This document shows positions 1-38,058 of a stretch of DNA of 38,058 nucleotides, piece after piece. Numbering within the stretch: position 1 is the first letter of the stretch; the number at the start of each line of letters is the position of its first letter. The notes under the pieces are model-generated. The model was not told the origin of the DNA and did no database searches. It saw only the letters and a list, made by a program, of their open reading frames with translations. Position numbers and translations under genes: made by a program. This DNA comes from Thermoplasmata archaeon (GTDB lineage Archaea > Thermoplasmatota > E2 > DHVEG-1). Where the stretch lies: the NCBI GenBank assembly GCA_030640585.1, contig DAOWIZ010000026.1, positions 1-38,058 on the forward strand. Direction: 5' to 3'.

Positions 1-249
1 CTCAACGATATCAAGACTTAAAAGCGATTCTTCTTCCCTATATCTTAAATTCATACCTCGAATAGCACCAATAACATTAGTAGGCGTAGTTTTAACATTA
101 TAAGCAATTTCAGAAGTATAACTACAGCTAGGGCTAATTTCAAACAAGTATTCAGCAATTTTTTTACGAATACTACTTCTTCGCAGAGCCCTTATCACAA
201 GCGGTCTTTTCATTTCGATAGAAGACTCTAATCTATTATCTTCCTGCAT
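1..249 (-). CDS. EarA-like (archaellum operon activator family) winged-helix regulator, C-terminus cut by window edge
   Basis: Open minus frame from ATG at 249 to the edge (83 codons, no stop): MQEDNRLESSIEMKRPLVIRALRRSSIRKKIAEYLFEISPSCSYTSEIAYNVKTTPTNVIGAIRGMNLRYREEESLLSLDIVE. The SY.SEIA...TPTNV.GAIRGM..RY pattern resembles EarA-family wHTH proteins. Not in the ORF track. Confidence 0.6.
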   Translation of the reverse strand, partial: MQEDNRLESSIEMKRPLVIRALRRSSIRKKIAEYLFEISPSCSYTSEIAYNVKTTPTNVIGAIRGMNLRYREEESLLSLDIVE

Positions 250-641: not shown

Positions 642-1124
642 TAAACTAAAAAGAGATAAATATCATTAACTTGTAAAAATTAATGGAAATGTGAAAGAGA
701 AGAGGTAGATATCAAATATCCCCAGATCTCTCATATCAGCAAGAAGGGATAGATACCAAATATCTTCCAATCCGCTGCTCACACACCATGTTATTGTTTG
801 ACACTGATAGTATTTAAACTTGTTGTGTTAATATATCAAATTGACAGAATTGAATTTTTAAATTTATTATAGATGGTGAAACTAATCAGACCGCCTATGT
901 TGGCATAGGCAATTATAATAAAACAAGTACTGAATTTGCTTGGAGACTCATGACATTTAGAGGTGAAACTTTTTACATGTGGGGCAATTCCACTAAATTC
1001 TACTAAAAAAATATTTCTTTTTCCATTTTTTCTTTTTTTCAAATTAAAATCCTACTAAAAATATTAGTTTTTATAGTTAGATTTTTAAACTACCAGTATT
1101 TTATCGCTTACAACGTGTGAACGT

Positions 1125-15943: not shown

Positions 15944-16083
15944 AGGTTTATCAAATCAAAAATCTTTTAATAAATTCTTCTAAAGGATATACGGATAGAG
16001 AGTTGCAAGTGAATCTGAAACTCATTTGGAAAAAAACATCTTTGATAAAGTATTTAATTATATTTGCTTATATATGGAAACCT

Positions 16084-16545
16084 ATGACAGTTAAATTTTT
16101 GATTACAGGCGGTACATTTGATAAGGAATATATGGAAACAACAGGAGATCTCGTTTTTAAAAACACACACATTCTGGACATACTGAAATTAGGAAGATGT
16201 AAAGTTGATATAAAAATAAGGACTTTATTTATGATTGATAGTTTAGAAATGACCAAGTATCATAGAAATATTATTTTAGAAAAATGTTTAAACTCCAAGG
16301 AAGAAAAAATAATAATTACACATGGGACTGACTCAATTACAGAAACAGCAAATATCTTAGGTCAAAATGTTAAAGATAAGACAATAATACTCACAGGTGC
16401 CATGATACCTTTTGCATTTGGCAGTTCCGACGGTCTATTTAACATAGGAAGTTCTTTAGCCTTTGTTCAGACTCTGCCACATGGTGTTTACATTTCAATG
16501 AATGGTAAATATTTTCGCTGGGATAATGTCAAAAAAATAAGATGA
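16084..16545 (+). CDS. Asparaginase-like N-terminal domain protein (short form), apparently frameshifted at its C-terminus
   Basis: FLITGGTFDKEYMETTGDL, IIITHGTDSITETANIL, LTGAMIPFAFGSSDGLFNIGSSLAFVQTLPHGVYISMNGKYFRWDNVKK. ATG at 16084 fits homology better than the track start at 16003. Confidence 0.82.
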   Translation: MTVKFLITGGTFDKEYMETTGDLVFKNTHILDILKLGRCKVDIKIRTLFMIDSLEMTKYHRNIILEKCLNSKEEKIIITHGTDSITETANILGQNVKDKTIILTGAMIPFAFGSSDGLFNIGSSLAFVQTLPHGVYISMNGKYFRWDNVKKIR

Positions 16546-16614
16546 CCGGTGAGTTCGAAGAAAAAAATTTAGATGCGCTGTAATCTTCTTACTTAACCAT
16601 TTATAAAGTTATTG

Positions 16615-16633
16615 TGTTAAAATGTCAAAATGA
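16615..16633. promoter_or_regulatory. Recurrent motif copy 1: TGTTAAAATGTCAAAATGA
   Basis: Exact 19-mer shared with 31329-31347 and 31872-31890; intergenic. Confidence 0.55.
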
Positions 16634-16643
16634 TAAAAGACAG

Positions 16644-16679
16644 ATCTAAAAAAAATAAAGAATAGATGTTTTTTTAGAT
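16644..16679 (+). terminator. 11-bp perfect inverted repeat with A/T tracts between asparaginase-like gene and GNAT gene
   Basis: ATCTAAAAAAA - 14 nt - TTTTTTTAGAT. Confidence 0.4.
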
Positions 16680-17284: not shown

Positions 17285-17836
17285 ATGACAAATGAGAAAA
17301 CAAAGAACAATACAAGGACTTGCATTGACTGCAGCAAGGATATCTCTAATTTGTACCATAACGCTATTAGGTGTAAAGAATGCAGCCAGCGTATGAAAAA
17401 AATAAAGGACAGTATCCGCCATAAAAAGAAAAGACTTGGACAACTTAAATGGAATTTTTTTATAGAAGACCCAAAGACGGGAGATGTCATACATCAGAAC
17501 GCTAAAGGTAGTAAACTACGATATTGGCTTGATAAGGTTTGCAGAGAACTTACAACACAAGAACTTGATCTGATTTTAAAATTCTGGGATCGCAGAATAA
17601 AAGATCCAAGTACATCCTCTAAACAAAAAGAGGAATACAGAACCTGTGCAGGGATGGTTAGGAACTGGAGAGACTACTTTAAACTAAAAGAAAAACTTGA
17701 GGGAACTTCTTTTGATGCCACAAGTGGTCTGATATACCAACCTGATGGAACTTATTACACAGTTGACTTTGATGAAGAAAATGGTACATATATAGTTCGT
17801 GACAGTGAAGGAACTGTTCTCTATGAACTATTGTAA
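17285..17836 (+). CDS. Zinc-knuckle protein of unknown function
   Basis: 183 aa; CIDC-x16-CKEC pair near the N-terminus, then a basic region; no family recognised. Confidence 0.75.
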   Translation: MTNEKTKNNTRTCIDCSKDISNLYHNAIRCKECSQRMKKIKDSIRHKKKRLGQLKWNFFIEDPKTGDVIHQNAKGSKLRYWLDKVCRELTTQELDLILKFWDRRIKDPSTSSKQKEEYRTCAGMVRNWRDYFKLKEKLEGTSFDATSGLIYQPDGTYYTVDFDEENGTYIVRDSEGTVLYELL

Positions 17837-17849
17837 GTAGAGAAACGCG

Positions 17850-17927
17850 TGTTTTTTACTTTTCGTACCACGCAGTTAAGTTAGTGAAGTTTTTTGTCAG
17901 AGTTTTGTTAGAACGAGCATATGCTAT
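17850..17927 (+). repeat. 78-bp direct repeat, copy A
   Basis: TGTTTTTTACTTTTCGTACCACGCAGTTAAGTTAGTGAAGTTTTTTGTCAGAGTTTTGTTAGAACGAGCATATGCTAT; 74/78 identical by eye to 19338-19415. Confidence 0.9.
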
Positions 17928-17995
17928 ATCTCATTTTTTAACCCCAAAGTTGACATCATAAGTTTTTTAATATCACTCGTCATTGGGGTAAGGCT

Positions 17996-19327
17996 ATGGA
18001 AGACGATCTAAGCACACTTGGAGTAATACCATCAGATAGAAAAAAACTAGAAAGCATGGGAATAACAACACTTGAACAAATTGCTCTTTCTTCAATTTCA
18101 GCTCTTGGACTTGGGAACAGCAAAAGCAGTGTACTTATACAAAGAGCGCGAAATATTCTTGCTAATAAAAACATAGTTGATGTACAAGTAGTTGATGAGG
18201 ATTTAATAGAAGTTACTGTGAGAAGAACAGATCGTGCTGTTATAAATTCAGTTCTTAACGCCCTTGAAGTTCAATCCTCAGGATATGGTAACACTGCGTT
18301 GGAAACCAAAGGAAACATTTTGAAACTATCACGAAGATCAAATGCGTTTAACAAAGTCATCCGAAATGCTGAAACCCTTCAAGAAATAGTAGAAGCGAAA
18401 AAACTTGAAGAACACGAAAAAAGTGGTATATCTCTCCCTGAAGAAGAACTTAGAAAATTTGCAAAAAAACGAGGTTTTCAAGGTTTCATTGATAATGTTT
18501 TCCAAGAGATACATGGCAATGACACAATGAAAAAAGTAATTGCTACAAGTATGTTTTCCACATATGAAGAACCAGTACACTCATTAATTATTGGTGAACC
18601 GGGTAGCAGTAAAACAATGGCTAAAGAAATCATCAGTGATGAATTCTCAGGGATTACAAACATAGGTGCAAATACTACTCGTTCAGGGCTTGTATGCAAC
18701 CTAGGAACAGGAGATCTTGGGGCATTACCGCATTCAAATAAAAAAATAGTTCTTGTTGACGAGTTTGACAAAATACCAGGTGAAGATATAGAATATTGTT
18801 ACGAACTTCTTTCAAATGGTAAATGCAGTGTTCACTCAGCAAAACTACATCAAAACATTGAAAGCCGGTTTATTATGATTGCTTTTGCAAACCCACGTTC
18901 AAAAGTATTTGGAAAAAACTCACTAAATGATATTGGTCTTTCCCCATTACTACTGAGTAGATGCGCACTAGTTGTAAGAGTAAAAAACATTAGTAAACAA
19001 GAAAGAGTTGATCTGTTCAAGAAAAAATTTTATGGTACTGGCGAACTAAAAGAAAAACATGACTATTATGATCAATGGGTGAAACTAGCAAGAACCTATC
19101 AACCAAAAATAACAGCATCAGATAAAATTGTTGAAAAATATCTAAATGATATGAATGAAATAGTTGAACAACATCATAACACAAATCTACGTAGAGATCT
19201 ACGTATGGGAGACTACATTAGACGTATACCAATGGCAATAGCAAGAGCATCATTTTCCAATGTTGATAACAAAATAATCTCTGAAGCATTAGACATCTTC
19301 AAAGAGTCAATAGAAACATGGTCCTAG
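17996..19327 (+). CDS. AAA+ ATPase with MCM-like core and N-terminal helix-hairpin-helix domain
   Basis: 443 aa; HhH-like LGVIPSDRKKLESMGITTLEQIALSSISALGLGNSKSSVLIQRAR; Walker A GEPGSSKT; Walker B KIVLVDEFDKI (MCM IDEFDK-like); sensor FANP; LSPLLLSRCALVVRV near the MCM SRFDL position. No MCM N-terminal OB/Zn domain seen. Confidence 0.78.
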   Translation: MEDDLSTLGVIPSDRKKLESMGITTLEQIALSSISALGLGNSKSSVLIQRARNILANKNIVDVQVVDEDLIEVTVRRTDRAVINSVLNALEVQSSGYGNTALETKGNILKLSRRSNAFNKVIRNAETLQEIVEAKKLEEHEKSGISLPEEELRKFAKKRGFQGFIDNVFQEIHGNDTMKKVIATSMFSTYEEPVHSLIIGEPGSSKTMAKEIISDEFSGITNIGANTTRSGLVCNLGTGDLGALPHSNKKIVLVDEFDKIPGEDIEYCYELLSNGKCSVHSAKLHQNIESRFIMIAFANPRSKVFGKNSLNDIGLSPLLLSRCALVVRVKNISKQERVDLFKKKFYGTGELKEKHDYYDQWVKLARTYQPKITASDKIVEKYLNDMNEIVEQHHNTNLRRDLRMGDYIRRIPMAIARASFSNVDNKIISEALDIFKESIETWS

Positions 19328-19337
19328 AGAGATACCA

Positions 19338-19415
19338 TGTTTTTTACTTTTCGTACCACACAATTAAGTTAGTGAAGTTTTTTGTCAGAGTTTTGTTAGA
19401 ACGAGCGTAAGCTAT
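19338..19415 (+). repeat. 78-bp direct repeat, copy B
   Basis: TGTTTTTTACTTTTCGTACCACACAATTAAGTTAGTGAAGTTTTTTGTCAGAGTTTTGTTAGAACGAGCGTAAGCTAT followed by a T-run. Confidence 0.9.
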
Positions 19416-31067: not shown

Positions 31068-31328
31068 ATTTTAGTTTCACCCCAGATACGTTAGTTGTTA
31101 TGTGGGCGAAACAAAAATGTCTATAAAAATTTGTTGATACAAATACATCATTCATAATATAGTTTTATTGGGATTGGTGATGGGTCTGGATTTTGAAAAA
31201 CAGGAGAATTGGTGAATTATCCTAAAATTTTTTTGTTATATTGTATGTTATATTTACCCAGACCCAGATTTTTTATTTTTAGGATGGATCGGAAAAAGTG
31301 ACATGTTTTATGATATTTAAGGGTGTCC

Positions 31329-31358
31329 TGTTAAAATGTCAAAATGACAAAATGTCAA
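31329..31358. promoter_or_regulatory. Recurrent motif copy 2, extended: TGTTAAAATGTCAAAATGACAAAATGTCAA
   Basis: Exact TGTTAAAATGTCAAAATGA 19-mer extended into an 8-bp-period array TGTTAAAA/TGTCAAAA/TGACAAAA/TGTCAA. Confidence 0.55.
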
Positions 31359-31402
31359 TTTTATAGAAATATTTGAAAAAAATTAGAGAGGCAGGTAATT
31401 TT

Positions 31403-31792: not shown

Positions 31793-31871
31793 TTTACCTT
31801 CCACCTTGCCAAAACATATTGCTACATTATGACATGATAGTATTTGTCGATTATGGTATATAAAACTAATC

Positions 31872-31890
31872 TGTTAAAATGTCAAAATGA
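31872..31890. promoter_or_regulatory. Recurrent motif copy 3, upstream of the response regulator
   Basis: Exact TGTTAAAATGTCAAAATGA; adjacent TTTTATATACC on the minus strand is a plausible TATA box between motif and gene. Confidence 0.5.
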
Positions 31891-31924
31891 AAAAATAAAA
31901 AATGAGAGTTATAACACATTTTTA

Positions 31925-37519: not shown

Positions 37520-38058
37520 ATGACGAAAGAATTCTTTAACCCTGAAATTGAAACAAAACCTTTGGATGAATTAAAAGAATTGCAATTGAAAAGGTTAAAA
37601 CACTTAATTAAATATGTTTATGATAGCAATAAATTTTATAATAAAAAACTCAAAGATGCAAATATTAAACCTGGCGGTATTAAAGATCTTAAAGATATAG
37701 AAAAATTACCTTTTTTAACAAAACAGGATCTGAGAGAGTTTTATCCTTTTGGTCTTGTCTGTACTGAAATTGATGAAATAGTAGAAGTTCATGCATCATC
37801 GGGTACAACAGGTAAACCAGTTGTTGGACCATATACCCAAAATGATGTAGATCTTTGGGGCGAGGTTATGGCTAGATCACTATGGGCAAATGGTCTTCGT
37901 AAAAATGATGTCATGCAGAACTCTTATGGATATGGTCTTTTCACTGGTGCTCATGGTTTTGAAAAAGGAGCTCAAAAAATTGGTGCTATGGTTGTAACAA
38001 TTAGTTCTGGAAATACTAAGAGACAAATTAATGTAATGAAAGATTTTGGATCTACAGC
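37520..38058 (+). CDS. paaK: Phenylacetate-CoA ligase-like AMP-forming ligase, N-terminal part (runs off window)
   Basis: ATG at 37520 after GGAGG; LIKYVYDSNKFYNKKL, LPFLTKQDLREFYPFGL, VHASSGTTGKPVVGPYTQNDVDLW, YGYGLFTGAHGFEKGAQKIGA. Confidence 0.88.
   Translation, partial: MTKEFFNPEIETKPLDELKELQLKRLKHLIKYVYDSNKFYNKKLKDANIKPGGIKDLKDIEKLPFLTKQDLREFYPFGLVCTEIDEIVEVHASSGTTGKPVVGPYTQNDVDLWGEVMARSLWANGLRKNDVMQNSYGYGLFTGAHGFEKGAQKIGAMVVTISSGNTKRQINVMKDFGST

What the first reader, a model, noticed from the sequence alone, without database searches (positions are those of the whole stretch)
17850..19415. 78-bp near-identical direct repeat bracketing an HhH plus MCM-like AAA+ ATPase gene
Seen: 17850-17927 and 19338-19415 match at 74/78 positions. 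Each copy starts 11-14 bp after a different stop codon (zinc-knuckle gene and ATPase gene). Substitutions fall in CGCAG/CACAA and in the terminal AGC-ATAT-GCT / AGC-GTAA-GCT, where the AGC...GCT arms are kept, suggesting a short hairpin followed by T-rich DNA. The flanking genes are unrelated, so coding homology does not explain it. Inference: a mobile or att-like duplication, a shared 3'UTR/sRNA, or a cis-site used by the encoded DNA-binding ATPase.
Basis: partly seen in the sequence, partly recalled or inferred. Interest (0 to 1): 0.75.

Follow-up and report, generated by a model that had tools for sequence, protein, structure and literature searches.

The report
Duplicated insertion-site element flanking ATPase gene
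A 78-base sequence that normally sits just behind one small archaeal gene occurs a second time behind a relocated DNA-handling ATPase gene, and relatives show that the counterpart of this sequence acts as a landing site for inserted DNA.

Summary
The repeat is real: 74/78, extending to 92% over 89 columns at 17839-17927 and 19328-19415. There are only two copies in the genome and none in 98 relatives. It does not fold and is not in Rfam. Its core (TTTACTTTTCGnACCACRCA) also lies directly behind the orthologues of the zinc-ribbon gene (17285-17836) in two other genera, so it is native to that gene, and the copy behind the ATPase is the duplicate. In many relatives the ATPase lies in a RIO-KH-ATPase-nadE cluster; here that cluster is dispersed and the ATPase has moved. 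A parent gene family (F0) carries at the same place a conserved 26-nt element, TYCGCCAACATATADTATARYGAGG, absent from 345 other genomes of the phylum. In genus g12, comparing an empty with a filled genome shows DNA inserted exactly in that element, with a 20-bp duplication. I conclude that the window shows the same architecture (gene-element-cargo-element), with the ATPase as cargo. This rests on analogy: the window has no empty-site relative, its repeat is longer than 20 bp, and no recombinase was identified. A cis-site for the ATPase is not supported.

The parts
17839..17927 (+). Repeat copy 1, behind the zinc-ribbon gene; native place of the element
   Evidence: the same core sits behind orthologues in G013 and G002
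17855..17874 (+). Conserved core in copy 1: TTTACTTTTCGTACCACGCA
   Evidence: Conserved in three genera
19328..19415 (+). Repeat copy 2, directly behind the ATPase stop codon; the duplicate
   Evidence: no repeat or element behind the ATPase in relatives
19343..19362 (+). Conserved core in copy 2: TTTACTTTTCGTACCACACA; keeps the ancestral CACACA
17285..17836 (+). Zinc-ribbon gene (183 aa), variant of the F0 family
   Evidence: no Pfam family above its cut-off
17996..19327 (+). ATPase gene (443 aa) with MCM P-loop domain; apparent cargo between the repeat copies
   Evidence: PF00493 E 9.9e-16; conserved single-copy family protein usually found with RIO, KH and nadE genes
17963..17972 (+). TATA-like TTTTTTAATA 24 nt before the ATPase start codon; probable own promoter
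   Evidence: Read from sequence; inference

Best explanation
The repeat is the native 3'-end element of the zinc-ribbon F0-type gene. It is present twice because a segment carrying the ATPase gene was inserted at it, leaving gene-element-ATPase-element. The element works like an attachment site: a conserved sequence just behind a gene that is used as target and duplicated on insertion, much as tRNA 3' ends are. Shown: the repeat, its restriction to two copies, its native place behind the zinc-ribbon gene in three genera, the ATPase's absence from its ancestral cluster, and insertion with a 20-bp duplication at the paralogous F0 element in genus g12. Inferred: that the window element and the F0 element are homologous, and that the same kind of insertion brought the ATPase here. 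Also inferred: the T-tracts end transcription of both genes in the usual archaeal way.
For: Core conserved directly behind orthologues in two other genera and otherwise nearly absent from 45 family genomes. ATPase normally in a RIO-KH-ATPase-nadE cluster, dispersed in this genome. F0 genes carry a 26-nt element at the same place, confined to the family. Empty site G042 versus filled site G035: left and right matches overlap by 20 bp within the element. Same gene-element-insert-element layout in G041.
Against: No empty-site relative exists for the window locus itself. The window repeat (78-89 bp) is longer than the 20-bp duplication seen in G035. Similarity of the window element to the F0 element is only suggestive (p 0.009 for copy 2 and 0.04 for copy 1; not found by a profile scan). 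No recombinase gene was found in the insert or elsewhere in the window. The conserved insert ends seen in g12 were not recognised here.
Confidence: 0.5

Rival explanations
1. Ordinary segmental duplication: the T-rich 3'UTR/terminator of the zinc-ribbon gene was copied behind the ATPase by illegitimate or homologous recombination when the ATPase moved, with no special insertion site. It now simply ends both transcripts.
For: Both copies start just behind a stop codon and hold 4-5 T-tracts, more than 84-94% of other 3' regions in the genome sample. U-tracts without a hairpin are the usual archaeal terminator (PMC8716108). The repeat is longer than the F0 insertion core.
Against: The core carries conserved GC-containing sequence not seen at other 3' ends, and its paralogous counterpart is a proven insertion site.
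Confidence: 0.33
2. Shared regulatory element: the core is a binding site in the 3'UTR or DNA, perhaps for the zinc-ribbon protein itself, and its second copy puts the ATPase under the same control.
For: Core conserved in three genera next to a gene for a basic, zinc-ribbon protein; the F0 element co-occurs with the F0 gene (Fisher p 0.001) and extra copies often lie behind unrelated genes.
Against: No functional data; the long identical stretch outside the core is not explained; ATPase genes of relatives lack the element.
Confidence: 0.11
3. The repeat is a cis-site on which the encoded ATPase acts.
For: Only proximity and the presumed DNA-binding fold of the ATPase.
Against: G013 has the element without the ATPase; 24 other family genomes have the ATPase without repeats around it.
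Confidence: 0.03

Closest known systems
Archaeal integrated mobile elements at 3' ends of protein-coding genes (thaumarchaeal iMGE, PMC6563490)
   Same: Target at the 3' end of a gene (one of the reported targets is a Zn-finger gene), short direct repeats at both ends, empty versus filled sites in relatives.
   Different: Here the target lies mostly in non-coding sequence conserved across a whole archaeal family; the window cargo is a resident ATPase gene and no integrase was found with it.
Integron gene-cassette arrays, including archaeal ones (PMC9668308)
   Same: Layout of gene next to a site, then cargo and site; G035 has six element copies.
   Different: The site does not fold and lacks the paired attC boxes; no IntI was identified.
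Casposon-type transposition with target-site duplication (PMC6563490, PMC6614799)
   Same: Sequence-specific target at gene 3' ends, duplicated on insertion.
   Different: No Cas1 search was made and no long terminal inverted repeats were seen in the window; duplication length differs.
Archaeal U-tract terminators recognised by aCPSF1 (PMC8716108)
   Same: Place behind stop codons, several U4 tracts, no hairpin.
   Different: Extra conserved sequence specific to one gene family and only two copies in the genome.

Membership tests
Site-specifically integrated element (attL/attR) | Direct repeats bracket the insert | tested here: met
Site-specifically integrated element (attL/attR) | Empty site with one repeat copy in a close relative | tested here: inconclusive
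   Met for the paralogous F0 element (G042 vs G035). For the window locus G013 and G002 have a single copy but share no synteny beyond the gene
Site-specifically integrated element (attL/attR) | Integrase or recombinase in the insert | tested here: not met
   The only sizeable gene in the insert is the ATPase; two tyrosine recombinase matches lie on other contigs C69 and C13
Same element as the F0 3'-end element | Place directly behind an F0-family gene | tested here: met
Same element as the F0 3'-end element | Sequence homology to TYCGCCAACATATADTATARYGAGG | tested here: inconclusive
   Gapped alignment p 0.009 (copy 2) and 0.04 (copy 1), weaker for G013 and G002; not found by profile
Integron cassette (attC) | Foldable single-strand site with RYYYAAC and GTTRRRY boxes | tested here: not met
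   Folds worse than shuffles; boxes not paired in either copy
Generic terminator family | Many copies at unrelated 3' ends | tested here: not met
   Two copies only; core 8-mers essentially absent from other 3' ends
Archaeal U-tract terminator | T-tracts just behind stop codons | tested here: met
   4 and 5 T-tracts against a mean of 1.9
Archaeal U-tract terminator | Transcript 3' ends map to the tracts | not testable with these tools
   Needs Term-seq
Casposon | Cas1-family integrase and terminal inverted repeats | not tested
   No Cas1 search was made

The most novel reading that the evidence does not exclude
The F0 gene and its 3' element form a resident gene-capture system of this archaeal family: chromosomal genes such as the ATPase are inserted as element-bounded cassettes behind the F0 gene, integron-like in layout but with unrelated sites and machinery, perhaps involving the F0 protein.
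Probability: 0.12. Interest if true: 0.85.

Novelty: new variant of a known kind. Interest (0 to 1): 0.55.

Why it matters
A family-specific, unstructured 26-nt element that is conserved behind one uncharacterised gene and used as an insertion site explains an otherwise odd repeat. It gives a concrete, testable integration hotspot in uncultured archaea and shows how a conserved ATPase gene may leave its ancestral cluster.

Tried and rejected
Hairpin: folds worse than shuffles. Known RNA family: none for the repeat or for seven F0 loci. Integron attC: not met. Coding explanation: open frames exist in the repeat, but they differ between copies and relatives and are broken by indels. Generic terminator family: only two copies, and core 8-mers absent from other 3' ends. 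Viral origin: no relative of the zinc-ribbon protein and no element in viral contigs. Horizontal transfer of the ATPase: the tree does not resolve its place. Fold of F0: low-confidence model (pLDDT 61) and no significant Foldseek match. G044, where 1.9 kb lies between the F0 gene and the element: clean right junction but no left element copy, so it was not used as proof. tRNA as target: none in the window.

Full report
Observation. The two copies are present as described: 74/78 identity, extending to 92% over 89 columns from 17839 and 19328, far beyond chance. The genome holding the window (G000, 1.29 Mb, 102 contigs, 81% complete; the window is contig C36) has only these two copies, and none of 98 other genomes from family to phylum level has one at E<=0.01. 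In 0.70 Mb of this genome, most other local repeats of 60 bp or more that I examined lie in long ORFs or look coding. Many contig ends overlap by exactly 141 bp, which suggests an assembly k-mer longer than the repeat, so a repeat-collapse artefact is unlikely (inference).

What the repeat belongs to. Directly behind the stop codon of the zinc-ribbon gene's orthologues in G013 (58% protein identity) and G002 (53%) lies the same core, TTTTACTTTTCGAACCACACA and TTTATTTTTCGACCACACA. G002 is apparently the Alinen lake sediment MAG, since the contig lengths agree. The pattern TTTTCGN{0,2}ACCACRCA has five hits in 45 family genomes: these two, the two window copies and one inside serS. Upstream flanks of the same genes show no similarity, while the 3' flanks are mostly well above shuffles. 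So copy 1 marks the native place and copy 2, behind the ATPase, is the duplicate, although copy 2 keeps the ancestral-looking core better.

The ATPase. The protein has an MCM P-loop domain. It occurs once per genome in 24 of 44 other family genomes at 69-77% identity. Loci read in full show the cluster RIO kinase, KH protein, ATPase, nadE; gene names here are from sequence recognition. In G000, RIO-KH lies on C50 and nadE, near purC, on C3. The ATPase has thus left the ancestral cluster. No relative has repeats around it, and G013, 95% complete, has the element but no ATPase. This speaks strongly against a cis-site for the ATPase.

A parent element. The zinc-ribbon protein is a variant of a wider family, here called F0, without a Pfam family above cut-off. 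Behind F0 genes lies a conserved sequence, TYCGCCAACATATADTATARYGAGG, from 18 nt before to 37 nt after the end of the stop codon, overlapping the reading frame in a few genomes. Conservation drops sharply at both sides and a T-rich stretch follows. In a phylum-wide scan it gives 37 hits in 24 of 45 family genomes and none in 345 others. It co-occurs with F0 (Fisher p 0.001; my tally, computed) and matches no Rfam family. Some genomes have two to six copies, the extra ones often 29-142 nt behind unrelated genes.

The parent element is an insertion site. In genus g12, G042, G029 and G011 read F0-element-RNase III gene. In G035 one contig matches G042 up to the end of the element, and another matches G042 from the start of the element onward, overlapping by 20 bp, ATCCGCCAACATATAATATA. 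The sequence on the inner sides is foreign to G042; its ends recur at other element copies of G035 and G038 and, in part, in genus g18. The two junctions are on different contigs, so the insert itself was not read through. G041 shows F0-element-2.7 kb-element. CTTAGGAATATAT and ATATATTCCTAAG on either side of the core look like recombinase arm sites (inference). G035, G017 and G038 hold 11, 12 and 5 tyrosine recombinase matches against 1 and 3 in G042 and G029, but G041 has none and no match lies in the inserts read, so the enzyme is unknown.

Synthesis. The window has the same layout with the zinc-ribbon variant: gene-element-ATPase-element. The simplest account is insertion of an ATPase-bearing segment at the 3'-end element. 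The weak points are the lack of an empty site at this very locus, the longer repeat, and only suggestive homology between the two element types (TTCG--CCA-ACATATAATATAGTGA against TTCGTACCACACAATTAAGTTAGTGA, p 0.009 and 0.04). A plain copy of a T-rich 3'UTR remains a serious rival: both copies are rich in T-tracts, the usual archaeal terminator signal (PMC8716108).

Relation to known systems. Integration at 3' ends of protein-coding genes, including a Zn-finger gene, is known in Thaumarchaeota, with att sites of median 17 bp there and 29-69 bp in Crenarchaeota (PMC6563490). Integron attC sites are excluded by lack of fold and boxes (PMC9668308). What appears new is a family-wide conserved, largely non-coding target and a resident ATPase gene as apparent cargo.

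Noticed in passing
L044, L047, L051, L131 and others, behind the F0 gene: A 26-nt unstructured element TYCGCCAACATATADTATARYGAGG is conserved at the 3' end of an uncharacterised gene family and confined to one archaeal family; extra copies lie behind unrelated genes.
   Followed up: partly
G035: L185, L206, L208, L209: Six element copies in one genome with recurrent flanking ends, possibly an array of inserts between the F0 gene and the RNase III gene.
   Followed up: partly
window 810-868, 16599-16657, 31313-31371, 31856-31914: Four related intergenic stretches sharing TGTTAAAATGTCAAAATGA, containing a palindrome-like TGTCA-AAA-TGACA in one; possibly a promoter or operator family.
   Followed up: no
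window 37918-38058: Identical over 141 bp to the start of contig C3, so the window probably continues into C3, which carries nadE about 13 kb in.
   Followed up: partly
window 2-208 and 728-851: Similar to other contigs of the same genome: C1 (82%) and C7 (90%), in regions without a long ORF.
   Followed up: no
window 16003-16545: ORF matching only the N-terminal asparaginase domain (180 aa), possibly truncated.
   Followed up: no
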